Part shown: piece by piece, positions 8,667 to 23,088 of the stretch
Numbering within the stretch: the first letter of the stretch is position 1
How the letters are laid out: each line of letters opens with the position of its first letter
Source of the DNA: Saccharopolyspora dendranthemae
GTDB lineage: Bacteria > Actinomycetota > Actinomycetes > Mycobacteriales > Pseudonocardiaceae
Length of the DNA stretch: 64,000 nt
Reading direction: 5' to 3'
Assembly: GCF_007829955.1 (NCBI RefSeq)
Contig: NZ_VIWX01000001.1
Location: 620,001-684,000, forward strand
Notes under the pieces: model-generated
The model's input: only the letters and a program-made list of their open reading frames with translations
Database searches by the model: none
Told to the model about the DNA's origin: nothing
Position numbers and translations under genes: made by a program

Positions 8667-10438
8667 GACCGGCCCGCTACTGCGGTCGGAGCGTCGTCGC
8701 CGGACTCCGCCAGCGCCTCGAACTCGTTGACCGCATCGATCTCGTTGCCCATCGACACGTTGGTGACCCGCTCGACCACGACCTCCACCACCACCGGGAC
8801 CCGGTGCTCGGCGACGAGCTTCTTGGCCTGCTCCAAGGCGTCGAAGATGCTCTCGGACTCGAAGACCCGCAGCGCCTTGCACCCCAGCCCCTCGACGACC
8901 TTGACGTGGTCGACGCCGTAGCCGGCGACCTCCGGTGCGTTGATGTTGTCGAAGGCCAGCTGCACGCAGTAGTCCATGTCGAAACCGCGCTGCGCCTGCC
9001 GGATCAGGCCGAGGTAGGCGTTGTTGATGAGCACGTGCACGAACGGGACGTTGAACTGCGCGCCGACCGCGAGCTCCTCCACGAGGAACTGGAAGTCGTA
9101 GTCGCCGGAGACCGCGACCACTGTGGACTCCGGGTCCGCGGTGGCCACCCCGATGGCGGCGGGCACCGTCCAGCCCAGCGGGCCGGCCTGGCCGGCGTTG
9201 ATCCAGTGCCGCGGACGGTAGACGTGCAACATCTGCGCCGCCTGGATCTGCGAGAGCCCGATCGTGGAGACGTAGCGCGTATCAGGTCCGAACGCGCGGT
9301 TCATCTCCTCGTACACCCGCTGCGGCTTGATCGGAGCCGCGTCGAAGTGGGTCTTGCGCAGGAGCCCGGTCTTGCGGACCTGGCACTCCTGGCTCCACCC
9401 GCTGCGGTCGGCGAGCTTGCCGCTCCCCCGCCACTCGCGCGCCACCTCGACGAAGACCTCCAGCGCGGCGCGCGCGTCGGAGACGATCCCGTAGTCCGGG
9501 GCGAAGACGCGCCCGATCTGCGTCGGCTCGACGTCGACGTGGACGAAGGTCCGTCCCCGTCGGTAGGTCTCCAGACCACCGGTGTGCCGGTTGGCCCAGC
9601 GGTTGCCGATGCCGAGCACGAAGTCCGACTCCAGCATCGTCGCGTTGCCGTAGCGGTGCGCGGTCTGCAGTCCGACCATGCCTGCCGACAGCGGGTGGTC
9701 GTCGGGGATCGCGCCCCAGCCCATGAGCGTGGGCACGACCGGAACGCCCAGCGTTTCGGCGAACTCCACGAGCAGGTCGGCAGCGTCGGCGTTGATGACG
9801 CCGCCACCTGCGACGATCAGCGGCCGCTCGGCCGCGTTGAGCATCTCCAGCGCGTGCTCGACCTGCGCTCGGGTCGCCACCGGGGTGGCCACCGGCAGCG
9901 GCTCGTAGGTGTCGATGTCGAACTCGATCTCGGCCAGCTGCACGTCCAGCGGCAGGTCGATCAGCACCGGCCCCGGCCGACCTGAGCGCATCAGCTGGAA
10001 GGCCTTCTGGAAGGTGCCCGGGACCTGAGCGGGTTCGAGCACCGTCACGGCCCACTTGGTGACCGGCTGGGCCACCGACTGGATGTCGACCGCCTGGAAG
10101 TCCTCCTTGTGCAGCTTCGCGACCGGGGCCTGGCCGGTGATGGCCAGGATCGGGATCGAGTCGGCCGATGCGGAGTACAACCCGGTGATCATGTCGGTGC
10201 CCGCGGGACCCGAAGTGCCCACGCACACACCGATGTTGCCCGCATCGGCACGCGTGTAGCCCTCAGCCATGTGGGACGCGGCTTCGACGTGCCGGGCCAG
10301 CACGTGGTGGATGCCGCCGTGCTTCTTCATCGCGCTGTAGAACGGGTTGATCGCGGCGCCGGGCAGCCCGAAGGTCTGCGTGGCGCCCTCCTTCTCCAGG
10401 ATGAGGGCGGCGGCGTCCACGGTGCGCATTCGCGTCAT
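8663..10438 (-). CDS. gcl: Glyoxylate carboligase (tartronate-semialdehyde synthase)
   Basis: 591 aa ThDP enzyme joining two glyoxylates to tartronate semialdehyde plus CO2. It closely follows E. coli Gcl by eye: [48 protein letters not shown]. Residue 51 is Val where other ThDP enzymes have the catalytic Glu, a known diagnostic of Gcl. The ThDP/Mg motif [17 protein letters not shown]...NNAYLGLI is intact near the C-terminus. It sits between glxR and the FAH-family gene, the usual glyoxylate-pathway order. Confidence 0.95.
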
Positions 10439-10462
10439 GTTCGTCCTCGTTTCGGCGGAGGG

Positions 10463-11347
10463 TCAGGTGTCGCTGAGACCGGAGAGTCGTTCGACGCCGC
10501 GCAGCAGCGCGGAGTGGTCGAGCCCGCCGTCACCGTGGGCGCGAGCGGAGGCCATCAGCTGCGCGAGCAGCGAGCCCAGCGGCACGACAGCACCGGATTC
10601 GCGGGCGGCGGCGGTGACGATGCCCAGGTCCTTGTGGTGCAGGTCGATGCGGAAACCGGGGGCGAAGCTGCGGTCGAGCATGTTCCGGCGCTTCTGCTCC
10701 AGCACCGCCGACCCGGCGAGCCCGCCGCCGAGAACTTCCAGCGCTGCTTCGGTGTCCACGCCGTAGGATTCGACGAACACCACCGCTTCCGCCAGCGCCT
10801 GGATGTTCGAGGCGACGATCAGCTGGTTCGCGGCCTTGACGGTCTGCCCAGCTCCGGTCGGGCCGACGTGCACGACGGTCTTGCCGACGTGCTCGAAGAC
10901 CTGTTCCGCGGCGGCGAAGTCCTCGTCGGACCCACCGACCATGATGGACAGAGCGGCGTTCTTGGCGCCCGCCTCACCGCCCGAGACCGGGGCGTCGAGC
11001 AGCCGGAAGCCCTTGTCCGACGCTTCCCGGGCGAGCTCGATGGTGACGTCCGGCCGGATGCTGGAGAAGTCGATGATCAGCGCGTTCGGCTTGGCGTTGG
11101 CGTAGACCCCGCCCTCACCGGTGAGCACGTCACGCACGTCGGGGCTGTCGGGAACCATCACGCAGACGATCTCGGCGCCCGCGACGGCCTCGGCGATCGA
11201 GCCTGCCGTGCTGCCGCCCGCGGCCGTGAGCGGGCCGTACTTGTCCGGCGAGAGGTTGTATCCGGTCACGTCGTGGCCGGCGTTGGCGAGGTGCACGGCC
11301 ATGGGACTGCCCATGACACCCAGGCCGATGAACGCGATCGAGCTCAT
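10463..11347 (-). CDS. glxR: 2-hydroxy-3-oxopropionate (tartronate semialdehyde) reductase
   Basis: 294 aa beta-hydroxyacid dehydrogenase. The N-terminal Rossmann motif IAFIGLGVMGSPMAVHLANAG, the substrate signature DAPVSGGEAGAKNAALSIMVGG and the catalytic-Lys region GQTVKAANQLIV are all present. It reduces tartronate semialdehyde to D-glycerate with NAD(P)H. It is 24 nt upstream of gcl and 29 nt downstream of hyi. The name garR would fit the same chemistry; glxR is chosen for the glyoxylate context. Confidence 0.92.
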   Translation of the reverse strand: MSSIAFIGLGVMGSPMAVHLANAGHDVTGYNLSPDKYGPLTAAGGSTAGSIAEAVAGAEIVCVMVPDSPDVRDVLTGEGGVYANAKPNALIIDFSSIRPDVTIELAREASDKGFRLLDAPVSGGEAGAKNAALSIMVGGSDEDFAAAEQVFEHVGKTVVHVGPTGAGQTVKAANQLIVASNIQALAEAVVFVESYGVDTEAALEVLGGGLAGSAVLEQKRRNMLDRSFAPGFRIDLHHKDLGIVTAAARESGAVVPLGSLLAQLMASARAHGDGGLDHSALLRGVERLSGLSDT

Positions 11348-11376
11348 GTCTTGCTTCCTCCTCGAAGTTCTGTCGT

Positions 11377-12189
11377 TCAGCTGCGGCGCTCGCGCGGGAG
11401 CCAGTCGAAGGGGCCCGCTTGGCCGCTGGCCTTGTACTCCAGACCGACCCAGCCGCGGTAGCCGCCGTTCTCGATCGCGGCGAGCTGGCGCTGCAGCGGC
11501 AGGGATCCCGTGCCCGGCTCGTTGCGGCCCGGGTTGTCGGCGATCTGCACGTGGGCGATGCGGTCGACGTGGTCGGCGATGACCTTGTCGACGTCGTCGC
11601 CGTTGGCCGCGAGGTGGTACAGGTCGGCGAGCAGCCCGAGGTTGGTGGCGCCCGAGTCCGCCTGCACGCGGTCGATGACCGCGAGGGCGTCGGCGGCGGT
11701 CCGCAACGGGTACGGCTGCGGGCCGCTGACCGGCTCGACCAGCACCGTTCCGCCGATCCGCGCGGCCGACCGGGCCGCGAGCGCGAGGTTCTCCAGCGCC
11801 AGGGCGTCCTGCTCCTCCGGCGAGGCGTCGTCGACGCGATTGCCGTAGAGGGCGTTGAACGCGGTGCAGCCCAGGCGCTCGCCGATCTCGACCGTGAGGT
11901 CGATGTTGTCGCGGAACTCGCGGCTGCGCGCCGGCCACGAGACCAGACCGCGCTCACCCCCGGGCATGTTGCCCGCGAAGAAGTTCAGCCCGACCAGCCG
12001 CACTCCCGCCTCGTCGATGGCGCGCACGAAGGCGTCCACGTCGCGCTGCGCGGGCACCGCGGTGTCGAAGGGCCACCAGAACTCCACGGCGTCGAACCCG
12101 GCCGCCTTGGCCGCGGCCGGTCGCTCCAGCAGCGGCAGGTCGGTGAGCAGGATCGAGCAGTTGACCTCGTAGGGCAGTGCGTGACTCAT
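11377..12189 (-). CDS. hyi: Hydroxypyruvate isomerase
   Basis: 270 aa TIM-barrel protein of the xylose-isomerase-like family. Recognisable Hyi segments are FDAVEFWWPFD, LVGLNFFAGNMPGGERGL, TAFNALYGNR, VLVEPVSGPQPYPL, LGLLADLYHLAANGDD and HVQIADNPGRNEPGTG, holding the acidic/His metal ligands. It interconverts hydroxypyruvate and tartronate semialdehyde. First gene of the operon, preceded by AAGGGGACGGCTGCG and the promoter at 12242-12270. Confidence 0.93.
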   Translation of the reverse strand: MSHALPYEVNCSILLTDLPLLERPAAAKAAGFDAVEFWWPFDTAVPAQRDVDAFVRAIDEAGVRLVGLNFFAGNMPGGERGLVSWPARSREFRDNIDLTVEIGERLGCTAFNALYGNRVDDASPEEQDALALENLALAARSAARIGGTVLVEPVSGPQPYPLRTAADALAVIDRVQADSGATNLGLLADLYHLAANGDDVDKVIADHVDRIAHVQIADNPGRNEPGTGSLPLQRQLAAIENGGYRGWVGLEYKASGQAGPFDWLPRERRS

Positions 12190-12241
12190 CGCAGCCGTCC
12201 CCTTAATTCCGTATCGCGGATGTATATTTCCGGTTTCCAAA

Positions 12242-12397: not shown

Positions 12398-13084
12398 GTG
12401 AGGCGCCCGCACGTACTGCTCAGCGTTGCCGTGAGCGCGGACGGCTGCATCGACGACGTGGGCGCGCAGCGGTTCCCGCTGTCCAACGCCGCGGACTTCG
12501 ACCACGTCGATCAGATGCGCTCGGAGTCGGACGCGATCCTGCTCGGCGCGGGAACGGTCCGGAAGGACGACCCGCGCCTGCTCGTCCGTTGCGCGCACCG
12601 GTGCGCGCAACGGGCCGCGCGCGGACGTCCGGAGCACCCGCTCAAGGTCGTCGTCACCGGCAGCGGCGAGCTCGACCCGGCGTCACGGCTGTGGCACCTC
12701 GAAGGCGGAAAGCTCGTCTACACCACCGACTCCGGCGCGGCCGCAGCCCGGAGGTCACTGGCCGATCTGACCGAAATCGCTTCTCTCGGACGAACGCTCG
12801 ACTTCGGCGCGCTGCTCGACGACCTGGCCGAACGCGGCGTCGAGCGACTCCTGGTCGAGGGCGGCACCGGCATCCACACCGAGTTCCTCAGAGCGGGACT
12901 GGCCGACGAGATCCGCATGGCGATCGCGCCGATGTTCATCGGGCAGGCCGCTGCGCCGCGCTTCCTGAACCCCGCCGAGTTCCCCGGCGGCCCCGCCCGC
13001 CGCTTCCACCTCGAAGACGTGGCGAAGATCGGCGATGTGGCCGTGCTGCGCTACTTCCCGAACATCGATTCCGAGACCGGCTGA
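12398..13084 (+). CDS. RibD C-terminal-like pyrimidine reductase
   Basis: 228 aa from a GTG. The DHFR-like fold of RibD_C is clear: LLSVAVSADGCIDD at the N-terminus, AILLGAGTVRKDDPRLLVR and the C-terminal GVERLLVEGGTGIHTEFLRAGLADEI. Such enzymes reduce the ribosylamino side chain of the riboflavin-pathway pyrimidine with NADPH. It stands alone from riboflavin genes but beside a GTP cyclohydrolase II-like enzyme, a creatininase-family protein and a PTPS-fold protein, so it probably works on a related pyrimidine. Divergent from hyi; convergent with the CDP-alcohol phosphotransferase gene with a 149-nt overlap. Confidence 0.85.
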   Translation: MRRPHVLLSVAVSADGCIDDVGAQRFPLSNAADFDHVDQMRSESDAILLGAGTVRKDDPRLLVRCAHRCAQRAARGRPEHPLKVVVTGSGELDPASRLWHLEGGKLVYTTDSGAAAARRSLADLTEIASLGRTLDFGALLDDLAERGVERLLVEGGTGIHTEFLRAGLADEIRMAIAPMFIGQAAAPRFLNPAEFPGGPARRFHLEDVAKIGDVAVLRYFPNIDSETG

Positions 13085-13745
13085 GCCACAGCACGTCCCG
13101 CCCGAACGACCACAGGAGTGCCAGCAGCGCCAACGCGATCAGCTCGCGTGCGCGCGGCACGATCCCCGAGGACGCGGCGACGAGCACGATCCCCTGCACC
13201 GCGGCGACGGTCTTGCGGGCCAGGCTCGGCGGCAGCCCGGCGCGAAGCCACGGCGCGGCCCAGGAAGCGGCCCCGAACGCGTAGCGCATCGCTCCGATCG
13301 TCAGCACCCACCACCCGAACGCCACCGAGACGTGCGCGCTGAGCACCAGGATCAGGAACGCGTCGACCTCCATGTCCAGCCGCGCGCCGAACTCCGACAC
13401 CGTCCCGGTGCGCCGGGCCAGCTTCCCGTCGACGAAGTCGCTGATCAACGCCAGCACTCCGAGCACGACGATGATCGTCGGCTCCGCGCGGTCGACCACC
13501 AGGGCGGTGATCACGATGGTCAGCACCGCGCGGACCAGCGTGATGCGGTCGGCGGGGTGCAGCGACGTCCTGCCGTGCCGTCGCATCGCGCGTCGCAGCA
13601 GCCCTCCGACGACGATCGCGCAGACGATCCCCGCTGCCCAGCCGACCGGCCCGAGACCGGTCGTCGCAGCCACCGCGGCGAGCGCGCCGACCTGGACAGC
13701 GGCCCACGCCAGGTGCTCGGCTGTGTTGCGGTGGAGTTCGATCAT
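12936..13745 (-). CDS. CDP-alcohol phosphatidyltransferase family membrane protein
   Basis: 269 aa, six or so hydrophobic helices. The family motif D-x2-D-G-x2-A-R-x8-G-x3-D-x3-D is recognisable as DFVDGKLARRTGTVSEFGARLDMEVD. Enzymes of this family move a phospho-alcohol from a CDP-alcohol onto another alcohol. The last ~55 residues are a low-complexity Arg/Ser/Gly tail read antisense through the end of the reductase gene, so the functional protein may end near DVLWLSRSR. The start lies only 26 nt from that of the divergent dehydrogenase gene. Confidence 0.8.
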   Translation of the reverse strand: MIELHRNTAEHLAWAAVQVGALAAVAATTGLGPVGWAAGIVCAIVVGGLLRRAMRRHGRTSLHPADRITLVRAVLTIVITALVVDRAEPTIIVVLGVLALISDFVDGKLARRTGTVSEFGARLDMEVDAFLILVLSAHVSVAFGWWVLTIGAMRYAFGAASWAAPWLRAGLPPSLARKTVAAVQGIVLVAASSGIVPRARELIALALLALLWSFGRDVLWLSRSRNRCSGSSAARPHRRSSPRLRGGSGGRGRRGTRRGSGSAAQRPAR

Positions 13746-13771
13746 CGCCACCCTGGTTTCGGAGGTCGTCC

Positions 13772-14743
13772 ATGGCTGAGGCCGCACGAGCATTGTGGGT
13801 CACTTCGGCGGGCAAGTGCGAGATTCGGCCCGTCGCGCTCCCGGCGTGTCCGCCGGATCAGGTCGAGGTGCGCACCCTGCACTCGGCGGTGAGCAGGGGA
13901 ACCGAAAGCCTCGTGCTGCAGGGGCGAATCCCCTCCTCCCAGCACCAGCGGATGCGGGCTCCGTTCCAGGAGGGCGAGTTCCCGTGGCCGGTCAAGTACG
14001 GCTACCTCAACGTCGGCGTGGTCGAGACCGGCCCGCCCGGGTGGGAAGGGCGAACCGTGTTCTGCCTGTTCCCGCACCAGACCCGCTACGTGGTCCCGGT
14101 CGACGCGGTCACGCCCGTGCCGCCCGAGGTGCCGCCGGAGCGCGCCGTGCTGGCCGGCACCGTCGAGACCGCGATCAACGCCCTGTGGGACGCGGCTCCG
14201 CTGCTCGGCGATCGCGTCTCCGTCGTCGGCGGCGGGATGGTCGGGTGCGCGGTGACCGCGCTCCTGGCGCGCTTCCCAGGCGTCGAGGTGCAGCTGGTGG
14301 ACGTCGATCCCGCGCGCGAGGCGACCGCGAACGCGCTCGGCGCGTCCTTCGCGACACCGGAGAACGCCGTCGGGGATCGCGACCTGGTGGTGCACGCCAG
14401 CGCCAGCGAGGAGGGCCTGACCCGGTCGCTGGAACTGCTCGCGGCGGAGGGCCGCGTGGTGGAGCTGAGCTGGTACGGCGATCGGCGGGTGAGCCTGCCG
14501 CTGGGCGAGTTCTTCCACTCCCGGCGGCTCACCATCCGCAGCAGCCAGGTCGGGGTGGTGGCACATCCGCGCCGCGACCACGGCGAGCGGATGGCGCTGG
14601 CGCTCCGGCTCCTCGCCGATCCGGTCTTCGACTCCCTGATCACCGGGCAGAGCCGCTTCGAGGAGATGCCGGAACTGCTCTCCGGCGAACTTCCGGCGCT
14701 GTGCCACCGGATTGACTACGGTGCGGACCATGCTCGCCGGTGA
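13772..14743 (+). CDS. Zinc-type MDR dehydrogenase lacking the catalytic Cys
   Basis: 323 aa medium-chain dehydrogenase/reductase. Residues ~35-50 read HSAVSRGTESLVLQG, where zinc enzymes have C-G-T-D; the SRGTE form is seen in BchC-like members, so the usual zinc site is absent. The Rossmann motif VSVVGGGMVGCAVTALLAR is intact and followed by QLVDVDPAR, an NAD(P) acceptor loop. A strong ribosome site GGAGG precedes the ATG. It is co-transcribed with the creatininase-family gene. It probably oxidises or reduces an intermediate of the cluster's unknown pathway. Confidence 0.85.
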   Translation: MAEAARALWVTSAGKCEIRPVALPACPPDQVEVRTLHSAVSRGTESLVLQGRIPSSQHQRMRAPFQEGEFPWPVKYGYLNVGVVETGPPGWEGRTVFCLFPHQTRYVVPVDAVTPVPPEVPPERAVLAGTVETAINALWDAAPLLGDRVSVVGGGMVGCAVTALLARFPGVEVQLVDVDPAREATANALGASFATPENAVGDRDLVVHASASEEGLTRSLELLAAEGRVVELSWYGDRRVSLPLGEFFHSRRLTIRSSQVGVVAHPRRDHGERMALALRLLADPVFDSLITGQSRFEEMPELLSGELPALCHRIDYGADHARR

Positions 14744-15419
14744 CACGACGGAGGACGTGCGGAATCGCGGGGCCGATGTCGCGGTGCTCCCGATCGGCAG
14801 CCTCGAGCAGCACGGCGCCCACCTGCCGCTGGTGACCGACACGGTCATCGCCTGCACGATCGCGCGTGAGCTCGCCGCCGCCCACCCGGTGCAGCTGCTG
14901 TCCCCGGTGACGATCTCCTGCTCGCAGGAGCACTCCGGCTGGCCGGGAACCGTGAGCATCTCCGCGCGGACGCTGAGCCTGGTGGTCGCCGACGTGTTCG
15001 ACTCGCTGCGCCGCTCGGGGGTGCCGAAGCTGGTGCTGGTCAACGGTCACGGCGGCAACTACGTGCTGTCCAACGTGGTCCAGGAGGCCGCCGGGGACAT
15101 GGCGCTGTTCCCGATGCCCGGTGACTGGGACGCCGCGCGCTCCGCCGCGGGCGTCGAGACGCCGTCCCGCAGCGACATGCACGCGGGCGAGGTGGAGACC
15201 TCGATCCTGCTGCACGCCCACCCCGAGCTGGTCCGGCCCGGGTACGAGACCGGCGATCACCTCGCCGACGACCGCAGGCACCTGCTCACCACCGGGATGC
15301 CGCGCTACGCCGAGTCGGGCGTGATCGGGAGGCCGTCGCTGGCCTCAGCCGACAAGGGACGCGACCTTCTCTCCGCTCTCGTCACGACCTTCGGCGACCA
15401 CCTCGCGGCGCTGCGCTGA
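14730..15419 (+). CDS. Creatininase-family metallo-amidohydrolase
   Basis: 229 aa. Metal-binding residues of the family are present in order: PIGSLEQHGAHLPL, D of TDTVIA, VNGHGGNYVLS and the late Glu of AGEVETSILL. Known members include creatininase, mycofactocin peptidase MftE and archaeal ArfB, which deformylates the formylamino-pyrimidine made from GTP. Given the atypical GTP cyclohydrolase II and RibD-like reductase nearby, an ArfB-like deformylase is the most attractive guess, but unproven. Starts at TTG 14712 or GTG 14721 are also possible; ATG 14730 matches the usual family start. Confidence 0.85.
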   Translation: MLAGDTTEDVRNRGADVAVLPIGSLEQHGAHLPLVTDTVIACTIARELAAAHPVQLLSPVTISCSQEHSGWPGTVSISARTLSLVVADVFDSLRRSGVPKLVLVNGHGGNYVLSNVVQEAAGDMALFPMPGDWDAARSAAGVETPSRSDMHAGEVETSILLHAHPELVRPGYETGDHLADDRRHLLTTGMPRYAESGVIGRPSLASADKGRDLLSALVTTFGDHLAALR

Positions 15420-16283
15420 ACGCCGGAGGAGCACCAGAGCACCCGGCAGCGCGGCGACGACCGCGAGCACGCCGTAGACCACCGCGGTCGCCAGGCCCAG
15501 TGCCGGGACGAGCCCGGTGGCGGCGAAGGCGACCGCCAGGAACGCCTCCCGCGGCCCCCACCCGCCGACGTTGACGGGCAGGGCCATCACCAGCAGCGCC
15601 AGCACGAACAGCGGGAGCAGCGTCTCGAACGGCACGTCAGCGCCCGCGACCCGCGCGGCGACCAGGAACATCGCCAGGTGCCCCGCGACCGTCACGACCG
15701 AGGAGACCGCCACGGGACCGGCCGCCCGCAGGGTGAACACGCCGCGACGCGCGTCCCGCCAGAGCGCCAGCACCGCCCGGCGCACCGCCGGGACCAGCAG
15801 GCTCAGGCCCGCCAGGGCCGCGACGACGATCAGCCCCGGACCGAGGTGGAACGGCAGCGACGGGCCGGTGACCAGGACGGCTCCCGCGACGGCGACGAGG
15901 GCGAGCTGCCCGGCGAAGCGTTCCAGCACGACGGCTCGGACACCGGCGCCGATGTCGCCGGAACGGTGGCCGTGGCTGACGGCTCGGTGCACGTCTCCGA
16001 GCACTCCGGCGGGCAGCACCGCGTTGAGCAGCAGCGCGCGGTAGTAGTCGGCCACGGCGACGCGCAGCGGCAGCCGCAGACCGAGACCGCGCGCGACCAC
16101 GCACCAGCGCCACGCGCTGCAGCCGGTGGTGACCAGCCCGATTCCCAGCGCCGCGAGCACCGCGGGCGGGTCGATCGACCGCACGCCGTCCAGGAACGCG
16201 TCCGTGCCCAGCCGCCACACCAGCACCGCGAGGATGCCGACCGCCACGAGAACGCGCAGCCAGGGCCACATCCGCCGGATCAC
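15345..16283 (-). CDS. Flippase-like (LPG synthase TM / UPF0104) membrane protein
   Basis: 312 aa with about eight hydrophobic helices. The conserved polar motif GVLGDVHRAVSHGH and the late GGWGPREAFLAV are characteristic of the UPF0104/AglD/LPG-synthase transmembrane family, several members of which handle lipid-linked or hydrophobic substrates. GTG start overlaps the upstream stop (GTGA). Its 3' end overlaps the convergent creatininase-family gene by 75 nt. It ends a four-gene fully overlapping operon (PTPS-fold, GT4, methyltransferase, this gene), suggesting the pathway product is membrane-associated or exported. Confidence 0.85.
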   Translation of the reverse strand: MIRRMWPWLRVLVAVGILAVLVWRLGTDAFLDGVRSIDPPAVLAALGIGLVTTGCSAWRWCVVARGLGLRLPLRVAVADYYRALLLNAVLPAGVLGDVHRAVSHGHRSGDIGAGVRAVVLERFAGQLALVAVAGAVLVTGPSLPFHLGPGLIVVAALAGLSLLVPAVRRAVLALWRDARRGVFTLRAAGPVAVSSVVTVAGHLAMFLVAARVAGADVPFETLLPLFVLALLVMALPVNVGGWGPREAFLAVAFAATGLVPALGLATAVVYGVLAVVAALPGALVLLRRSAQRREVVAEGRDESGEKVASLVG

Positions 16284-17053
16284 GCCGACTCCCCCGGCAT
16301 CGCCAGCAGATCGGCGTGGTGGACCACGACCCGCACGTCCCCGGTCCGCCGGCGCAGGTAGCCGGACTCCTCCGGGAGCAGGTCCGGATCCTGCTCGCAC
16401 GCGGCGCCGACCCAGCCGCGCAGCCACTCCTCGGCCAGCGGACCCGGCCCGAGCCGCCAGGGGCTCGGCCGGGTGAGGACCCCCGCGCCGAGCGCTTCGA
16501 ACGCGTCGACGGCGACCGGCACCGCGTCGGGTCCCAGCAGGTGACGGCGCTGGTGCCGGTTGAACGCGGCTTCGAACCGCGCGTCCAGCGGCTCCACCGG
16601 ATCGAGTTCGACGCGGCCCACCACGGTCAGCGTCAGCAGTGCGGGACAGCGGGCTTCGACGCACGCGGCGGCCAGCGCGCGCACCTCGGCGGGGGTGAGC
16701 ACGTCGAGCAGGGCCGAGGCCGTGACCAGCGAGGTTCCGTGGAGATCGGGTCCGCGCAGGGCGGCCAGATCGCCGTGGCGGAGCTCGACCGTGACGTCGT
16801 CACCGGTCACCGTCGCGCCCGCGAGTTCCAGGAGGCGCGGGTCCCGGTCGTGCAGCACCCAGTGCTGCGGTCCGTCGAGGTGCCCGGTCAGCCAGCGGCC
16901 CATGGAGCCGGTGCCGCAGCCCAGGTCGCGGATGACCAGGCGCGACTTCGGCAGCGACTCGCGCAGCGGTACCAGCAGGTCCGCCGCGCGGGCCTCGGCA
17001 TCGGCGCGTTCGCGGAGCGTCAGCCACTCCGGGGCGAAACCGGCGGCGGTCAT
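16280..17053 (-). CDS. Class I SAM-dependent methyltransferase
   Basis: 257 aa. The SAM motif I is IRDLGCGTGSMGRWL, followed by an acidic motif II region (VLHDRDPRLL) and motif III/IV (SLVTASALLDVLTPAE). The C-terminal domain has no family-specific signature I recognise. It overlaps its neighbours by 4 nt on both sides in the PTPS-fold/GT4/methyltransferase/flippase operon and probably methylates a biosynthetic intermediate or sugar of that pathway. Confidence 0.85.
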   Translation of the reverse strand: MTAAGFAPEWLTLRERADAEARAADLLVPLRESLPKSRLVIRDLGCGTGSMGRWLTGHLDGPQHWVLHDRDPRLLELAGATVTGDDVTVELRHGDLAALRGPDLHGTSLVTASALLDVLTPAEVRALAAACVEARCPALLTLTVVGRVELDPVEPLDARFEAAFNRHQRRHLLGPDAVPVAVDAFEALGAGVLTRPSPWRLGPGPLAEEWLRGWVGAACEQDPDLLPEESGYLRRRTGDVRVVVHHADLLAMPGESA

Positions 17054-18069
17054 GCCTCCAGGCTAGCCAGCGCCGCGCCCAGCTGCCGCGCGTTCGCCGA
17101 CCACGTCTGCAGCTCCTCCCTGCGTCGGCGCGCCGCCGCCCGCATCCCGGACCGGAACCCGGGGTCACCCACCCACCGGTGCAGGGCCTCGGCGAGCGCA
17201 CCGGGATCGCCGGGTGGCAGGAGCAGGCCGCCGTCGCCGAGCGCGTCCGGGGTGGCGCTGGCCATCACCGGGATGCCGCGCGCCAGCGCCTCGGTCACGG
17301 CCATGCCGTAGGTCTCGGCGCGGGAGGGGTGCACCAGCAGGTCGGCGGCGGCGTAGGCGTCGCCGAGATCGGCACCTGTCAGCGGGCCGCGCAGGGTCAC
17401 CCGCCGGCCGAGCCCGTGCTGCTCGATCAGCGCCCGGAGCAGGTCCAGGGTGGCAGGATCGGGCTGCGGTCCGACGACGTCGCAGGTCAGGGACGTTCCC
17501 GCGAGCGCTTCGAGCAGGACGTCGTGGCCCTTCCGAGGCGTCACCGAGGCGACGCAGAGGATCCGCGACACGCCGTCGGTGCCGGGCGAGAGGGGCGCCG
17601 GTTCCGTCCCGGGCGCAGCGGTGCGCACGCGGTCGGGGTGGAGTCCGTGGTGGTCCACGAGCCGCTGCGCGGCCTGCGGGCTGGTGCTGATGACGAGATC
17701 GGCCGCGCGCAGCGTCCGGCGTTCGGCGGCGTCGAGCATCGCGGCCTCGTCCGGGTTCAGCCCGGTCTCGTCCGCCAGCGGCAGGTGGACCAGCACCGCG
17801 ATCCGCAGCCGGCCCGCGTGGGCCCCGACCACCTCGGGAACGCCGCAGGCCACGAGCCCGTCGAGCAGCACCGCTCCCCCGTCGGCGACGGCGGCGAGCA
17901 CGTCGGACAACCGGGCCCGCGCCGCCTCGTCCGGCCGTGGCCAGGTTCCCGCGACGGCGACCTCCCGCACGTCGAACCCGAGCGCCGAGAGCCCGGCGGC
18001 GGCGTGTGCGTCGTAGGCGTTGCCGCCGCTGGGGTGCTGGGCATCCGGGAGGACGAAGTGGACTCTCAC
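17050..18069 (-). CDS. GT4-family glycosyltransferase
   Basis: 339 aa GT-B glycosyltransferase. The N-terminal domain opens with [20 protein letters not shown], the glycine-rich acceptor loop. The C-terminal domain holds [17 protein letters not shown] and the donor-binding [22 protein letters not shown] (E-x7-E motif). It probably transfers a nucleotide-sugar residue to the cluster's product. GTG start overlaps the PTPS-fold gene stop (GTGA). Confidence 0.9.
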
Positions 18070-18464
18070 AGCGCGCGTTCGTACCCGGCCCAGGCCACGT
18101 GCGACTCGTGCAGCGTGACCCGCAGGCCCTGCAGCCCGCGCCCGCCTTCGCCGAGCGCCCCCGCGTGCACCCGCTCGGCGATCCGGTCGGCGATGACCTT
18201 CGCCAGGAACTCCGTGGAGGTGTTCACCCCGGCGAACTCCGGTTCGTCGTCGAGGTTGCGGTAGTTGAGGCCGCCGAGGACGTCGCCGAGCTGTTCGGTG
18301 GCGCGTCCGATGTCGACGACGATGTTGTCGTCGTCGAGCTCCTCGCGCGTGAACGTCGCGTCCACCACGAAAGTGGCGCCGTGCAGCCGTTGCGCCGGAC
18401 CGAAGACCTCGCCCCGGAAGCTGTGGGCGACCATCACGTGATCACGAACGGTGACGGTGAACAA
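18066..18464 (-). CDS. PTPS/QueD-fold protein lacking canonical catalytic residues
   Basis: 132 aa. It aligns by eye along the 6-pyruvoyl-/6-carboxy-tetrahydropterin synthase fold: [49 protein letters not shown] and [12 protein letters not shown]. Key differences from E. coli QueD: the zinc motif HGH reads HGA (His28, Ala30), the catalytic Cys position is Ala24, and the catalytic Asp-His pair reads Asn67-Tyr68. His14 and the C-terminal Glu remain. A standard PTPS reaction is therefore unlikely. TTG start chosen because GGAGG lies 5 nt upstream. First gene of its operon. Confidence 0.8.
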
Positions 18465-18548
18465 GGTGACCTCCGTTGTCCTGGCGAGTTACTGTCGGGG
18501 TTCCGAACCGAGCGTAGTGATCGGTGGCCGAGGTGACGAGGGGGTCGC
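18465..18548. promoter_or_regulatory. Divergent promoter region between PTPS-fold and ribA-like genes
   Basis: 84 nt separate the two divergent starts and must carry both promoters. Ribosome sites are clear on each side (GGAGG for the TTG start, GAGGGGG for the ATG); no consensus -35/-10 pair was certain. Confidence 0.5.
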
Positions 18549-19190
18549 ATGCGCGAGCGAGCGAGTCGGGACATCATCGCGGAAGGGGACGTCGCCGAGT
18601 CGCGGTTGGCGACGCGGCGAGGCCCGTTCCGCGCCTTGGCGTTCCGCGACCCGGTCGACGGATTCGAGCACATGGCGCTGGTCTTCGGCTCCGCGACGAG
18701 CGAGGACGTCCTGGTGCGGGTCCACTCGGAGTGCCTGACCGGCGACGTGTTCGGGGCGCTGCGCTGCGAGTGCGGTGACCAGCTCGACCTCGCGCTGGAT
18801 CGGATCGTCGAGGAGGGCCGCGGCGTGCTGGTCTACCTGCGCGGTCACGAGGGACGCGGGATCGGCCTGGTGGCGAAGGTGCGCACCCAGGTGCTGCAGG
18901 ACTCGCGCGGGCTGGACACCGTGGACTCGGCGACGACGCTGGGCTATCCCGTCGACACCCGCGACTACGGTCCCGCGGCGAGGGTGCTCCGGCATCTTGG
19001 GGTGCGCTCGGTCCGGCTGCTGTCGAACAACCCGGACAAGTCGCGCGGGTTGGAGCGCTCCGGAGTCACGGTCGTGGAACGGGTTCCGCTGCTCGCCCCG
19101 GCGCACGAGCACAACCTCGACTACCTCACCGCCAAGCGCGACCGCCTCGCCCACGACCTGCCGCACATCGACGCGCACGCCCTGGACTGA
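18549..19190 (+). CDS. GTP cyclohydrolase II-like enzyme with Tyr-to-Gln active site
   Basis: 213 aa, close to the usual length of single-domain RibA. Zinc ligands are present in SECLTGDVFGALRCECG (Cys62, Cys73, Cys75). GHEGRGIGL, VDTRDYG with the nucleophile Arg, and LLSNNPDK are also intact. The position equal to E. coli Tyr105 (KIRAY) is Gln114 here (KVRTQ). In Streptomyces coelicolor RibA paralogues, loss of that Tyr is reported to stop the reaction at the formylamino-pyrimidine (FAPy). It is thus predicted to open a branch pathway rather than serve riboflavin. Its stop directly abuts the convergent MFS gene stop (TGATCA). Confidence 0.85.
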   Translation: MRERASRDIIAEGDVAESRLATRRGPFRALAFRDPVDGFEHMALVFGSATSEDVLVRVHSECLTGDVFGALRCECGDQLDLALDRIVEEGRGVLVYLRGHEGRGIGLVAKVRTQVLQDSRGLDTVDSATTLGYPVDTRDYGPAARVLRHLGVRSVRLLSNNPDKSRGLERSGVTVVERVPLLAPAHEHNLDYLTAKRDRLAHDLPHIDAHALD

Positions 19191-20666
19191 TCAGCGCGCC
19201 CGCCAGGGGCCGCCGCGCGCCAGCGACAGCACGAGCCCGGACAGCGCGGCCAGACCCATCGCTCCGGCGGCCACCGCGAAACCCAGCCGCACGGTGCTGT
19301 CGTCGGCGTTCGCGGCGTAGGAGGCGACGCCCGAGGATCCGAGCCAGCTGGTCAGGATCAGCAGCGCCACCGCGGTCCCGGCCGCTTGAGCGCTGTTGAA
19401 CAGCATCGAGCGGATCCCGTTGGCCACCGCGCGCCGGTCGCTGCTGACACCGGCCATGATCGAGCCGGTGTTCGGGGCGGTGAACAGACCGGTTCCACCA
19501 CCGATGAGCCCCAGCCACAGAGTCATGAGCAGCAGCGGCGCTCCCGCGGTCGCCAGCTGACCGGCGAGGCCGACGATGCCGAGCACGACCAGCACCGCAC
19601 CGAGGCTCGACAGGGTGCGCGCCGACCAGCGGGACGACAGCCGGCCGCTCAACGGCGCGCACAGCATCATCAGCAGCGCCAGCGGCATCACGATGAACCC
19701 GGCCTCCAGCGCCGTGCGGTGCTCCACCATCTGCTGGTGCAGGCCGACCAGGACCACGACGCCCGCGCGGCAGAAGGAGTTGAAGAACGCGGCCCCGTAG
19801 GCCTGTCCGCGGCCGGGGCGGCGCACCAGCTGGAAGTCCAGCAGCGGAGCCGAGATCCGCAGCTCCACCAGCACGAACGCCACGAGCAGCGCGATTCCGA
19901 GCAGGATCGCCGTCCACACCCGCGGGTCGGCCGCGCCCCACGGGCCGATGCGGTTGATGCCGAACAGCAGCACGGCCAGCCCGGTGCTGGACAACGCCGC
20001 TCCCGCGACGTCGAAGCGCTCTTCGGGCCCGCGAGTGCGCGACAGCTTCGGCAGGAGCCTCGCGCCCAGCGCCACGGCCAGGATCCCGATGGGAACGTTG
20101 ACCAGGAACAGCGCTTGCCAGCCGACGAAGGTGACCAGCAGTCCGCCCAGAGCCGGACCGATCATCTGCGCGATGGACGCGGCGGTGATGTTCAGGCTGA
20201 GGCCGCGCACCAGCCGGTCGGACGGGAAGACGTCGGTGAGGATCGCGGTGGTGTTGGTGACGGTGGTGGCGGCCGCGATGCCCTGCAGCGCGCGCAGCAC
20301 GATCAGCGCGGTGGCGTTCGGCGCGAAGGCGCACAGCAGGCTGATCGTGGTGAAGCAGACCAGACCGGCGAGGTAGATCGTCCGCCGCCCCAGCATGTCG
20401 GAGATCCGGCTGAACACCAGGATGGACGCGGTGTTGCTGAGCATGAACGCCACCAGGAACCAGTCGGCCGTGGCAGCCGGGACCTGGAAGGAGGCCGACA
20501 GCGCGGGCAGCGCCAGGTTCAGCGACGTGGTGTTGACCAGCACCAGCATCAACCCGAGCGTGGTGACCCCGAGCGCCCGGCGACACCGGCGGCGAACCTC
20601 CCGCTCGTCCTCCGCGGCTGGAACCGCCGCATCGCTCCCACTCGCGTCCTGCGCGCGCCTGGTCAC
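19191..20666 (-). CDS. MFS drug-type exporter (DHA2-like, 14 TM)
   Basis: 491 aa with about 14 hydrophobic helices. DHA2-type motifs are visible: SDMLGRRTIYLAG between TM2 and TM3, RALQGIAAATTV, and IGPALGGLLVTFVGWQALFLVNVPIG in the motif-C region. Such proteins export hydrophobic compounds by proton antiport. The GTG at 20666 was chosen because AAGGAG lies 8 nt upstream; a GTG at 20675 has no spacing from it. No regulator adjoins, but a 15-bp inverted repeat lies about 80-150 nt upstream. Confidence 0.9.
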   Translation of the reverse strand: MTRRAQDASGSDAAVPAAEDEREVRRRCRRALGVTTLGLMLVLVNTTSLNLALPALSASFQVPAATADWFLVAFMLSNTASILVFSRISDMLGRRTIYLAGLVCFTTISLLCAFAPNATALIVLRALQGIAAATTVTNTTAILTDVFPSDRLVRGLSLNITAASIAQMIGPALGGLLVTFVGWQALFLVNVPIGILAVALGARLLPKLSRTRGPEERFDVAGAALSSTGLAVLLFGINRIGPWGAADPRVWTAILLGIALLVAFVLVELRISAPLLDFQLVRRPGRGQAYGAAFFNSFCRAGVVVLVGLHQQMVEHRTALEAGFIVMPLALLMMLCAPLSGRLSSRWSARTLSSLGAVLVVLGIVGLAGQLATAGAPLLLMTLWLGLIGGGTGLFTAPNTGSIMAGVSSDRRAVANGIRSMLFNSAQAAGTAVALLILTSWLGSSGVASYAANADDSTVRLGFAVAAGAMGLAALSGLVLSLARGGPWRAR

Positions 20667-20745
20667 GATCAGCACTCCTTAGCGTCTAAAACATCCTAAC
20701 CTCCCTTCCCTTCCTGCTGGTCACGATGTCTCCTTCCTCACCAAG

Positions 20746-20815
20746 TCCCAGTTTTAGTCCAAACTGAGCAGACATTTCGGGCACGAAAGCCGCCCAATTA
20801 GGACTAAAACTGGGA
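20746..20815. repeat. 15-bp perfect inverted repeat
   Basis: TCCCAGTTTTAGTCC (20746-20760) is exactly inverted as GGACTAAAACTGGGA (20801-20815), spanning 70 nt. A smaller CAGTTT/AAACTG pair (20749-20766) and GGGC/GCCC are nested inside. It begins 6 nt past the arylsulfotransferase stop and lies upstream of the MFS gene, so it could terminate the former or regulate the latter. Confidence 0.75.
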
Positions 20816-20821
20816 ACTGCC

Positions 20822-22312
20822 TCACGCCACAGCAACCGCAGCGGACCTGCCGAGGACCGTTCCGCCCGTGTCGAGGGCTTCGACCGCTACGAAGGCTTGG
20901 GGGCCTTGGACGTCGATCTTGGTTTCGAAGCCGGACTTGGGGGCGTCGAGGACCGGGGCGAGGTTCTGGTCGTCCGGGCCTGCCAGGACTCGCCAGGTGG
21001 CCACCTCCGTGGCGCCGTTCCAGCTGGCGTAGACGCTGGTCACGCCGTCGCCGGGTTGCCCGGCCACCGCGGGGGAATCGGTCGGTTTGCCGACCCACTG
21101 CGCGCGGTAGGCGCGGTAGGAGCCCATCGACTCCGCGAAGCGGCCGTGGAACAGCACCTCGTCGTTCGGGCCGAACTCGGTGAAGTACGGCTTGCCGCCC
21201 CAGCCGACGAACATGTGCCCGTTGGCCAGCATCTGGGCGTTGCCCTGGTTGGGCGCCAGCAGACCCTCCGGGCTCTCGGCGCTGCGCAGCAACGTCGCCG
21301 TCTTCGCCGACTCGTCGACCTGCAACGTCATGCCGCGCGACTTGCCACGACCGGCCGCGTCGGCGTTGTCGAACAGGCTGAGCGAACCGTCCGCGTGCCG
21401 GCGGACGTCGTGCTGCCAGGCGAACGCCGCGTCGTCACCCATCGCGAAGTCGCTCTTGCTCCCGCACAGCCGCCACTTCACGTCCCCGCTCTTGCGATCG
21501 ATGCGGTAGACGGCGTGCGTGCAGCGAGCGGAGATCAGCACGGCGTCGCCGTCCTCGCAGATGGAGTTGAGGTGGATGTAGTCGTGGAACTGCTCGGGGT
21601 CCTTCGGCACCGGGAAGAACGTCTCGTCCAGGCCCACGTGCTCCAGACTGTTCCACTCGAAGACCAGCTCGCCGGAGGCGATGTCGATCTCCTGCACCAC
21701 GCCTTCCAGCACCTTCGAGTTCGGTTGCCCGCCCACCGGCGTCGTGTCGACGCGGACCTCGCGGTAGGCCAGCAGCAGGGCCGTGCCCTGCGGCGTGATG
21801 ATGAACTCGTGCAGGTCACCGGTCAGGCCGTTGACCGGGGCGACCTCGGCGATCCGGGTGTAGGTCTCGTCGAGGACCACGAACGTGCCGTGACCGAACC
21901 CGGGCGGCACCACGACGGAGCCCTCCCAGAACGTCAGGACCGGTTTCCCCTGGTACTGCTGGACCTTCAGGTCGAACTGCACACCGTCGGTCGCCGGCCC
22001 GAACCAGACCGCCTGCCCGGTGTCGTCCATGAGCATCGAACCCGGCTGGATCGGCGCGCGGGGTGCGGGCGCGCTCGCGTCCATCGTGCTCGCGCCCGTG
22101 GGCGTGAGCAGCACGTACCCCGGCTCGGTACCCGCCGCCGGGGTGATGATCTCCATCAGCGGCGGGTGCAGGTCGGGGCGGCTGACCAGGTCGGCACCCA
22201 GCGTGCCGGCGCGGGGCGCGGCCTGCGCCGTGCCCGACAGCGCTGCGGGGACCAGCGGTGCTGCGGCGAGCAGCCGCAGCACCGATCTGCGGTCCAACTT
22301 GTTGGCGGACAT
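20822..22312 (-). CDS. Tat-exported arylsulfotransferase (ASST) family protein
   Basis: 496 aa. The N-terminus DRRSVLRLLAAAPLVPAALSG is a twin-arginine signal with cleavage after AQA. The body is a beta-propeller of the arylsulfotransferase type with conserved segments DLHEFIITPQGTALLLAYRE, EWNSLEHVGLDE, HDYIHLNSIC and FAWQHDVRRHADG; the His residues correspond by eye to the catalytic region. ASST enzymes move sulfate between phenolic compounds without PAPS. It follows a PAPS-making operon and a sulfotransferase gene, linking it to sulfate-ester metabolism outside the cell. Confidence 0.82.
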   Translation of the reverse strand: MSANKLDRRSVLRLLAAAPLVPAALSGTAQAAPRAGTLGADLVSRPDLHPPLMEIITPAAGTEPGYVLLTPTGASTMDASAPAPRAPIQPGSMLMDDTGQAVWFGPATDGVQFDLKVQQYQGKPVLTFWEGSVVVPPGFGHGTFVVLDETYTRIAEVAPVNGLTGDLHEFIITPQGTALLLAYREVRVDTTPVGGQPNSKVLEGVVQEIDIASGELVFEWNSLEHVGLDETFFPVPKDPEQFHDYIHLNSICEDGDAVLISARCTHAVYRIDRKSGDVKWRLCGSKSDFAMGDDAAFAWQHDVRRHADGSLSLFDNADAAGRGKSRGMTLQVDESAKTATLLRSAESPEGLLAPNQGNAQMLANGHMFVGWGGKPYFTEFGPNDEVLFHGRFAESMGSYRAYRAQWVGKPTDSPAVAGQPGDGVTSVYASWNGATEVATWRVLAGPDDQNLAPVLDAPKSGFETKIDVQGPQAFVAVEALDTGGTVLGRSAAVAVA

Positions 22313-22365
22313 GGGTCTCCTCGAAGAGGCTCGAAACGCAAGGATGTGTGGCCAGTGCGGAAGTG

Positions 22366-22391
22366 GGGGAAGTTTTCATGAAAACTTCCCC
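22366..22391. repeat. GGGGAAGTTT-type palindrome, copy 2 (perfect)
   Basis: A perfect 26-bp palindrome: GGGGAAGTTTT, central CATG, AAAACTTCCCC. It lies 8 nt past the sulfotransferase stop and matches the element at 7738-7765. It may end the sulfate operon transcript before the arylsulfotransferase gene. Confidence 0.8.
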
Positions 22392-22398
22392 GTTTCCC

Positions 22399-23055
22399 TC
22401 AGGCTTCGAACGGCGAGGAGTACTTGCCCTCGCGCTGGGTCTGCTCGACCAGGTCGCGGATCGAGCCGGAGTCGTTGACGTGCGGGAACCCCTGCTCGGG
22501 AACAGGGACGTCGAGGAACTCGCACAGCCGGTCCCAGCCCTCGCCGACCTTGTAGACCAGCAGCCGGTCCGCAGGGACGGCCTCCTGGACCGCGGCGTTG
22601 TGGTCCTCGAAGACCTTGATGGCGTGCTCCCGGTCCTCGAAGCGGCCGTCGAAGGTGCCGTTCCAAATCATCCGCTCTATGGTCGGCCGCATCTGGGTGC
22701 TGAACGCGTCGTCGGCCGGCGGCTCCTTGACGAACTGGTAGATCGTGTTGAAAACGCTGTCGTACCAGCGCTCCGGGTCGCGGACGGTGAGCAGCACCTT
22801 GGCGTCCGGGTAGAAGTCCATGAGCTCGCGCCAGAAGGTGCAGCCCGGCCAGTCCACGGTGGACTCGAATCCGCCGAGCACCGTCTCCCAGTCGTCGACC
22901 GCTCCGTCGAGCGCGCGGTCCCAGTCCTTCGCCCGCTCGGGTTGGGCGATGACCTCGAACATGTGGTAGCACGGCGCGAAACCGAGGTGCTCCAGCGCCG
23001 CCTTCATCGACGCGGTACCGGTCCGGCCGAACCCGGCCCCGATGATCTTGACCAT
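22399..23055 (-). CDS. PAPS-dependent sulfotransferase family protein
   Basis: 218 aa. The 5'-phosphosulfate loop reads IIGAGFGRTGTASMKAALE at residues 4-22, followed by LLTVRDPERWYDSV, the 3'-phosphate-binding strand and helix seen in this cytosolic sulfotransferase-like family. The acceptor is unknown; related proteins sulfonate lipids, sugars or aromatic compounds. It sits 33 nt after cysN in the same direction, so it is made together with the PAPS-generating enzymes. Confidence 0.88.
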   Translation of the reverse strand: MVKIIGAGFGRTGTASMKAALEHLGFAPCYHMFEVIAQPERAKDWDRALDGAVDDWETVLGGFESTVDWPGCTFWRELMDFYPDAKVLLTVRDPERWYDSVFNTIYQFVKEPPADDAFSTQMRPTIERMIWNGTFDGRFEDREHAIKVFEDHNAAVQEAVPADRLLVYKVGEGWDRLCEFLDVPVPEQGFPHVNDSGSIRDLVEQTQREGKYSSPFEA

Positions 23056-23088
23056 TCTTTGCTCCTTCGTCGTGCTGTTCCCGGTCTG

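What the first reader, a model, noticed from the sequence alone, without database searches (positions are those of the whole stretch)
12398..19190. Undescribed pyrimidine/pterin-like branch pathway with lipid/glycan genes
Nine genes combine a GTP cyclohydrolase II-like enzyme, a RibD_C-like reductase, a creatininase-family hydrolase and a PTPS-fold protein with a CDP-alcohol phosphotransferase, MDR dehydrogenase, flippase-like protein, methyltransferase and GT4 glycosyltransferase. The minus-strand genes overlap by 4 nt. Inference: GTP is opened, deformylated and reduced as in archaeal riboflavin synthesis, then the product is methylated, glycosylated and membrane-attached or exported. I know of no assigned product for this gene set.
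Basis: partly seen in the sequence, partly recalled or inferred. Interest (0 to 1): 0.9.

Follow-up and report, generated by a model that had tools for sequence, protein, structure and literature searches.

The report
Widespread orphan GTP-to-pyrimidine lipid-linked pathway
These nine genes belong to a gene cluster, with a product nobody has identified as far as I could find, that occurs in many bacteria and in reduced form in salt-loving archaea; it appears to open GTP as in riboflavin synthesis and then turn the fragment into something methylated, sugar-bearing and probably attached to a membrane lipid.

Summary
The nine genes are real, and three minus-strand pairs overlap by 4 nt. The set is not local. 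A core of MDR dehydrogenase, PTPS-fold protein, GT4, methyltransferase, flippase-like protein and CDP-alcohol phosphotransferase recurs across Actinomycetes, in Proteobacteria, and reduced in haloarchaea. It includes the Streptomyces coelicolor SCO6650 gene.

Interchangeable GTP-opening modules sit on this core. Cluster GCH II lacking the Tyr105-equivalent accompanies a creatininase-family hydrolase in 97 of 98 loci. GCH II keeping the Tyr never does (0 of 13), and sits with a RibD-type reductase. Two Haloarcula plasmids carry GTP cyclohydrolase III instead. This supports GTP -> formamidopyrimidine -> diaminopyrimidine as the entry. The window has Gln at the Tyr position, a creatininase and its own RibD.

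The PTPS-fold protein has lost the catalytic Cys and third zinc His, so it is no ordinary PTPS/QueD. My mechanism: reduction to the ribityl compound, polyol oxidation by the MDR, ring closure to a pterin-like head group, then methylation, glycosylation and lipid attachment. Everything after the reductase is inference. The product is unknown, and the front end was partly studied in S. coelicolor (recalled).

The parts
12398..13084 (+). RibD_C-type reductase, no deaminase domain; best NCBIfam model is the archaeal/fungal 2,5-diamino-6-ribosylaminopyrimidinone 5'-P reductase (134.5 bits, below its 186.45 cut-off)
12936..13793 (-). CDP-alcohol phosphotransferase with intact D-x2-D-G-x2-A-R-x8-G-x3-D-x3-D motif (motif recalled, read by eye); a start at 13745 is possible; C-terminal part overlaps the RibD 3' end
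13772..14743 (+). MDR-superfamily dehydrogenase, fold like polyol/alcohol dehydrogenases
14712..15419 (+). creatininase-family amidohydrolase, putative formamidopyrimidine deformylase; residues E32, H34, D43, H113, E160 invariant
15345..16283 (-). flippase-like LPG_synthase_TM membrane protein
16280..17053 (-). class I SAM methyltransferase, 4-nt overlaps at both ends
17050..18069 (-). GT4-type glycosyltransferase
18066..18464 (-). PTPS-fold protein, orthologue of SCO6650 (PDB 3d7j); catalytic Cys and third zinc His replaced (PAQRLHGAT)
18549..19190 (+). GTP cyclohydrolase II homologue, Gln114 in place of E. coli Tyr105 (2bz0)

Best explanation
A conserved orphan biosynthetic pathway that starts from GTP. 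(1) The GCH II homologue opens GTP and, lacking the Tyr, probably stops at the formamidopyrimidine 2-amino-5-formylamino-6-ribosylamino-pyrimidinone 5'-P. (2) The creatininase-family enzyme removes formate. (3) The RibD-type reductase, without a deaminase, gives 2,5-diamino-6-ribitylamino-pyrimidinone 5'-P. (4, inferred) The MDR dehydrogenase oxidises a side-chain hydroxyl, most simply C2', and the 5-amino group condenses with the ketone on the PTPS-fold protein, closing a 7,8-dihydropterin ring: the same net outcome as the Amadori step of GTP cyclohydrolase I, by reduction plus oxidation. (5, inferred) The methyltransferase and GT4 enzyme decorate the head group, the CDP-alcohol phosphotransferase joins it to a lipid, and the flippase-like protein moves it across the membrane. 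Steps 1-2 rest on strong comparative evidence, step 3 on good evidence, steps 4-5 on gene content and chemistry only. My confidence figure is for steps 1-3 feeding a lipid-associated glycosylated product; I give step 4 as drawn about 0.3.
For: Conserved core in bacteria, with MDR, PTPS and often the CDP-alcohol enzyme also in haloarchaea. Swap rule: non-Tyr GCH with creatininase 97 of 98, Tyr GCH with creatininase 0 of 13; six of six proteobacterial cluster GCHs read keep Tyr and have no creatininase in the stretch (annotations); core tree needs at least 3 changes between the two front ends. Of the 31 top GCH hits, the window and three cluster loci lack the Tyr and the other 27 have it. GTP cyclohydrolase III in the cluster of two Haloarcula plasmids (Pfam 272.6 bits for L206). 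GCH-RibD and GT4-MT fusions in L144 (the MT half scores below Pfam's cut-off there). RibD family gene in 7 of 7 annotated proteobacterial loci. Bacterial precedent: BrbF, annotated creatininase, deformylates the same intermediate (PMC9478397, abstract and passages). PTPS-fold protein without Cys and third His in 128 of 128 readable copies. MDR model closest to threonine, sorbitol, idonate, butanediol and other alcohol dehydrogenases.
Against: No product or activity has been shown here. In 86 of the 97 loci with non-Tyr GCH and creatininase no RibD gene is recognisable in the stretch (10 have a distant one, the window a close one), so the reductase must come from elsewhere or is not used. The type-A GCH genes form one clade, so the residue/creatininase link is few events, not 97. 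18 of 129 loci have no GCH in the stretch held. Some PTPS genes stand alone (L115; L210). In haloarchaea GCH III is seen in 2 of 6 records viewed, both Haloarcula, RibD in none, and most of the methyltransferases and one glycosyltransferase there show no BLAST similarity to the window's. Not every creatininase-family protein is such a formamidase: two distant BrbF homologues did not complement (PMC9478397), and the window's scores far below the ArfB cut-off and closest to the mycofactocin peptidase model, itself below its cut-off. The own genome has a second creatininase-family gene.
Confidence: 0.6

Rival explanations
1. A dedicated second route to riboflavin or a flavin/lumazine analogue: the cluster makes the reduced pyrimidine for a flavin-type product that is then glycosylated and exported.
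For: GCH and RibD_C are riboflavin families; in several actinomycete genomes close RibD relatives sit beside or fused to a deaminase-like protein (L188 by Pfam; neighbourhoods), as in riboflavin synthesis; BrbF works in riboflavin synthesis.
Against: No riboflavin deaminase, lumazine synthase or riboflavin synthase is listed in the annotated relatives viewed (the plasmid gene tables are incomplete), and none is among the nine genes; the own genome has a separate GCH II in a 474-aa open frame, probably RibBA, with a RibD_C match 1.4 kb from it; PTPS-fold and CDP-alcohol enzymes are not riboflavin genes.
Confidence: 0.15
2. A pterin or 7-deazapurine (QueD-type) small-molecule pathway in which the PTPS-fold protein is the key enzyme and the lipid genes are bystanders.
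For: PTPS Pfam match; the Glu that anchors pterins in this fold (role recalled) is kept as E120 in 127 of 127 readable copies.
Against: Catalytic Cys and third zinc His missing in 128 of 128 readable copies; the recalled abstract of the SCO6650 structure paper says no zinc and no PTPS activity; no QueE, QueC or folate gene is listed in the annotated relatives viewed; in the 80 named loci the lipid genes are as conserved as the rest.
Confidence: 0.15
3. Scavenging or detoxification of damaged guanine nucleotides (formamidopyrimidine repair) rather than biosynthesis.
For: The creatininase and GCH may both act on formamidopyrimidines.
Against: GTP is the substrate of this GCH family (established knowledge), and glycosyltransferase, flippase and CDP-alcohol enzymes have no obvious place in such a pathway.
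Confidence: 0.03

Closest known systems
S. coelicolor SCO6650-SCO6655 locus
   Same: PTPS homologue SCO6650 (3d7j) matches the family profile at 2.5e-79; SCO6655 is listed as GTP cyclohydrolase II (PMC2853524, passage); the commonest order PTPS, GT4, MT, FLIP, CRE, GCH fits SCO6650 to SCO6655 (the numbers in between are inferred by counting)
   Different: The window carries RibD in the cluster, has Gln instead of Met at the switch position, and the PTPS-to-CRE block lies in the opposite orientation between MDR and GCH
Archaeal riboflavin entry (ArfA/GCH III, ArfB, ArfC)
   Same: Same logic: formamidopyrimidine, separate deformylase, reduction before deamination
   Different: GTP-opening enzyme is a GCH II variant; the creatininase matches the ArfB model only weakly (39.4 bits, cut-off 180)
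BrbF, S. meliloti SMc02977
   Same: Bacterial creatininase-family formamidase on the same intermediate (PMC9478397, abstract and passages)
   Different: BrbF serves riboflavin; its GTP-opening partner was not known to the authors; I did not align the two proteins
Canonical bacterial GCH II (RibA)
   Same: Zinc Cys motif and sequence family (2bz0 1.4e-48)
   Different: Tyr105 replaced by Gln114
PTPS / QueD (COG0720)
   Same: Family and one anchoring Glu
   Different: Catalytic Cys and third His lost

Membership tests
Canonical GTP cyclohydrolase II | Three zinc Cys (CLTGD...CECG; role recalled) | tested here: met
   Motifs RVHSECLTGD at 57 and ALRCECG at 70; aligned with 2bz0
Canonical GTP cyclohydrolase II | Tyr at E. 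coli position 105 | tested here: not met
   Gln114 aligned to 2bz0 Tyr105; role of the Tyr recalled
Creatininase-family amidohydrolase | Metal ligands Glu, His, Asp, His, Glu | tested here: met
   E32, H34, D43, H113, E160 invariant in 14 of 14; identity as ligands recalled
ArfB / BrbF deformylase | Deformylates the formamidopyrimidine | not testable with these tools
   Only indirect: exclusion of Tyr-type GCH
Archaeal ArfB model (NF033501) | Score above curated cut-off | tested here: not met
   39.4 against 180 bits
Archaeal-type RibD reductase (TIGR01508) | Score above curated cut-off | tested here: not met
   134.5 against 186.45 bits, but best of the seven models listed
PTPS / QueD | Catalytic Cys and His-x-His zinc site | tested here: not met
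   0 of 128 readable copies have the Cys or the third His; one copy is incomplete
SCO6650-SCO6655-type cluster | MDR, PTPS, GT4, MT, FLIP, CDP-OH, CRE and GCH together | tested here: met
   All eight in the window, the same eight in one order in 58 of 80 named loci
Riboflavin operon | Deaminase, lumazine synthase, riboflavin synthase | tested here: not met
   None among the nine genes or the genes at 19191-25262; genes upstream of 12398 were not run through Pfam
CDP-alcohol phosphotransferase | D-x2-D-G-x2-A-R-x8-G-x3-D-x3-D motif | tested here: met
   Read directly in the translation; Pfam 4.1e-15; motif recalled

The most novel reading that the evidence does not exclude
A lipid-anchored, glycosylated dihydropterin made without GTP cyclohydrolase I: GTP is opened by a GCH II or GCH III route, reduced to the ribityl compound, reoxidised at C2' and closed to a pterin, then joined to a diacylglycerol phospholipid in bacteria and an archaeol lipid in haloarchaea, serving as a membrane redox or envelope molecule. 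Cytochrome b genes beside proteobacterial copies (L199, L200, L201, L216; L199's is a b561 by Pfam) hint at a redox role.
Probability: 0.2. Interest if true: 0.92.

Novelty: new variant of a known kind. Interest (0 to 1): 0.66.

Why it matters
The interchangeable GTP-opening modules fix the likely entry chemistry, so a short list of enzyme assays and one lipid comparison could identify a widespread unknown metabolite. It would also give a pathway role to the formamidopyrimidine-forming GCH II of Streptomyces and to a PTPS homologue of known structure and unknown function.

Tried and rejected
Rejected: (a) the PTPS gene as ordinary QueD/PTPS; (b) the in-cluster RibD as the genome's only RibD: the own genome has several RibD_C matches, one 1.4 kb from its other GCH II; (c) RibD co-occurrence (48 of 58 PTPS genomes against 50 of 336 others, tallied by hand, in-cluster RibD counted, Fisher) as proof that RibD belongs to the pathway: the sample is phylogenetically uneven, and in several genomes this RibD sits beside or fused to a deaminase-like protein, so it may be the riboflavin enzyme; (d) the Fisher p as independent evidence: type-A GCH is one clade.

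Led nowhere: promoter/terminator scan (chance level); phage collection (one weak hit); paper searches for the cluster; methyltransferase fold search (generic). A sample of the whole phylum gave 30 of 149 genomes, but outside the class nearly all scores were low (71 bits or less, one at 117), so I did not use it for distribution. The first neighbourhood clustering was swamped by antisense ORFs and replaced. In the tree, M-type rows were thinned to 22 random ones plus a few chosen, and three rows (L002, L006, L009) were read on the wrong strand and are to be ignored; one search shows them with Tyr. In one search, M-type named rows were thinned to six random ones plus three chosen, nine loci were dropped by hand (L036-L040, L076, L115, L129, L153), rows with a short MDR match were dropped, and only ten plasmid loci were added. 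A first count of the PTPS motif listed 128 of 129 copies; redid it.
Full report
WHAT IS THERE. The nine genes between 12398 and 19190 are found by Pfam. Three minus-strand junctions overlap by 4 nt, which suggests a PTPS-GT4-MT-FLIP operon; the five others (RibD, MDR, CRE and GCH on +, CDP-OH on -) flank it. The GCH gene ends one base before the end of a convergent DHA2-type MFS transporter gene (19191-20675). The window lies in contig C1 of a 6.4 Mb genome that also holds a second GCH II with Tyr in a 474-aa open frame (probably RibBA), a RibD_C match 1.4 kb from it, GTP cyclohydrolase I and a second creatininase-family gene. Ordinary riboflavin and folate supply therefore need not depend on this cluster.

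THE SET IS A UNIT. In these 80, CDP-OH is present in 79, MDR in 79, GT4 in 79, MT in 78, FLIP in 77, CRE in 75 and GCH in 74; 58 have one identical order. Some loci are cut by contig ends; L115 has the PTPS gene alone. On plasmids, PTPS and MDR queries hit 27 and 28 of 72,556 records, 23 shared. Seven annotated proteobacterial records were viewed (Methylosinus, Thiodictyon, Agrobacterium, Peteryoungia, Rhodobacteraceae SC52, Palleronia, Rhizobium SL42): MDR next to PTPS and a RibD family gene in 7 of 7, ribA in 4, CDP-alcohol phosphotransferase in 4. Identity to the window proteins is 45-55% for MDR and 52-62% for PTPS. Two unannotated Rhizobiaceae records (L204, L208) hold MDR, PTPS, GT4, MT, FLIP, CDP-OH, GCH and RibD matches and no creatininase match. 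Six haloarchaeal records were viewed: MDR and PTPS in 6 of 6, CDP-alcohol enzyme in 4, annotated GTP cyclohydrolase IIa in 2 (both Haloarcula), creatininase in 1, RibD in none. MDR identity is 31-36% and PTPS 27-34% in the five compared; the methyltransferases show little or no BLAST similarity to the window's. The 'GTP cyclohydrolase IIa' of L206 is Pfam GCH_III at 272.6 bits; that of L215 rests on its annotation.

THE SWAP RULE. I examined 139 stretches (window, L032-L169) and took as cluster loci the 129 with a PTPS match of 45% identity or more (a few, such as L115, hold little else). 98 have a GCH without the Tyr (M 83, H 7, L 6, Q 2): 97 have a creatininase, the exception is L142. 13 have a GCH with Tyr: none has a creatininase, all have a RibD (11 at 42% identity or more, one at 33%, and L144 as a GCH-RibD fusion). 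18 have no GCH in the stretch; of these one has a creatininase and six a RibD. Near kin count separately, and the 98 are mostly Streptomyces. In a GCH tree the non-Tyr genes are one clade (97/84, 39 rows) with the window at the base of the Actinomadura-like group (100/100, 17 rows). On a core tree (PTPS plus MDR, quick method, many weak branches) at least 3 changes between the two front ends are needed. So the rule rests on a few coupled events plus long maintenance, not on 111 independent points. Six of six proteobacterial cluster GCHs read keep Tyr (four by eye, two), with no creatininase in the stretch. Of the 31 loci of top GCH hits, 27 have Tyr; the four without are the window and three cluster loci (the 27 were not each checked for their neighbours).

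WHY THE TYR MATTERS. From memory of the abstract of Spoonamore et al. 2006 (Biochemistry 45:12144; not held; cited in PMC3509567), SCO6655 makes the formamidopyrimidine instead of the diaminopyrimidine, and the switch is a Met at the Tyr position. The window has Gln there. A creatininase-annotated formamidase acting on this intermediate is shown in Sinorhizobium and Brucella (PMC9478397; abstract and passages read); the same paper reports two more distant homologues that did not complement. The exclusion of creatininase by Tyr is what that chemistry predicts.

THE REDUCTASE. The window RibD has no deaminase domain. In genomes with the PTPS gene, 48 of 58 have a RibD at E 1e-30 or better, against 50 of 336 without (hand tally, in-cluster RibD included). 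Of the 10 lacking it, four of the Streptomyces genus code carry a more distant RibD inside the cluster (L146-L149), and L144 and L169 a fused or distant one; for four none was found. But 86 of the 97 creatininase-type loci have no RibD in the stretch. Several of the RibD genes elsewhere sit near or fused to a deaminase-like protein (L188 by Pfam), so they may be riboflavin enzymes that share their product.

THE PTPS-FOLD PROTEIN. It is the orthologue of SCO6650, solved as 3d7j. In 128 of 128 readable cluster copies the Cys and the third His of the Cys-x3-His-x-His motif (recalled) are replaced, and E120 is kept in 127 of 127; the five haloarchaeal copies printed keep His-Ser-His. I recall that the structure paper reports no zinc and no PTPS activity. 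It therefore most likely binds a pyrimidine or pterin and does different chemistry.

MECHANISM. See Best explanation. The MDR model (pLDDT 90.4) folds like threonine, sorbitol, idonate and butanediol dehydrogenases among others, which fits oxidation of a polyol side chain but does not prove it; the Cys ligand of zinc MDRs is not conserved (SxGTE instead; ligand position recalled). L144 fuses GCH to RibD, and GT4 to MT (the MT half below cut-off), a sign of consecutive steps. A sulfatase-superfamily protein recurs in 12 of 60 stretches compared, in both phyla (the two tested score below Pfam's cut-off).

EXPRESSION HINT. SCO6652, which by counting is the cluster methyltransferase, is listed among the 53 conserved uncharacterised genes most changed in S. 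coelicolor development (log2 0.8, 4.3, 4.1 at 24, 48, 72 h; PMC3610822, passages).

NOVELTY. Ten paper searches in an open-licence library found no description of the cluster or product; most subscription papers are not held, and the Spoonamore work (recalled) shows that part of it was studied. I file it as a new variant of a known kind: known entry chemistry, unknown and possibly new product class.

Noticed in passing
window 20825-25262: Arylsulfotransferase, sulfotransferase and what look like sulfate adenylyltransferase subunits directly beyond the MFS gene (Pfam); whether the cluster product is sulfated is unknown.
   Followed up: partly
window 12936-13084: CDP-alcohol phosphotransferase and RibD ORFs overlap tail to tail by 149 nt on opposite strands.
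   Followed up: no
window 8663-12190: Neighbouring genes look like a glyoxylate carboligase, a 2-hydroxy-3-oxopropionate reductase-like protein and a hydroxypyruvate isomerase-like protein (by eye from the translations).
   Followed up: no
L144 10253-12154 and 13099-14451: GT4-methyltransferase fusion and GCH-RibD fusion in one compact cluster.
   Followed up: yes
L188 8256-9383; L171, L183, L184 and others: Inverted RibD: reductase first, deaminase fused behind it (L188, Pfam) or a similar-sized family member next door.
   Followed up: partly
L210 9001-9426; L115: PTPS-family gene standing alone among unrelated genes.
   Followed up: no
L199, L200, L201, L216: Cytochrome b gene beside proteobacterial clusters (b561 by Pfam in L199); FkbM methyltransferase in L201, L207, L216.
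   Followed up: partly
L134, L166, L063, L207: Inositol monophosphatase-family gene in or beside the cluster (annotated as such in L207), a candidate for removing the 5'-phosphate.
   Followed up: no
L047: More distant cluster with GCH running into a RibD-like stretch (by eye), MDR, PTPS and GT4 at 32-51% identity; PTPS keeps His-Ser-His.
   Followed up: partly
G000:C1:844679-845299: Second creatininase-family gene in the window's genome, 190.8 bits; not identified further.
   Followed up: no
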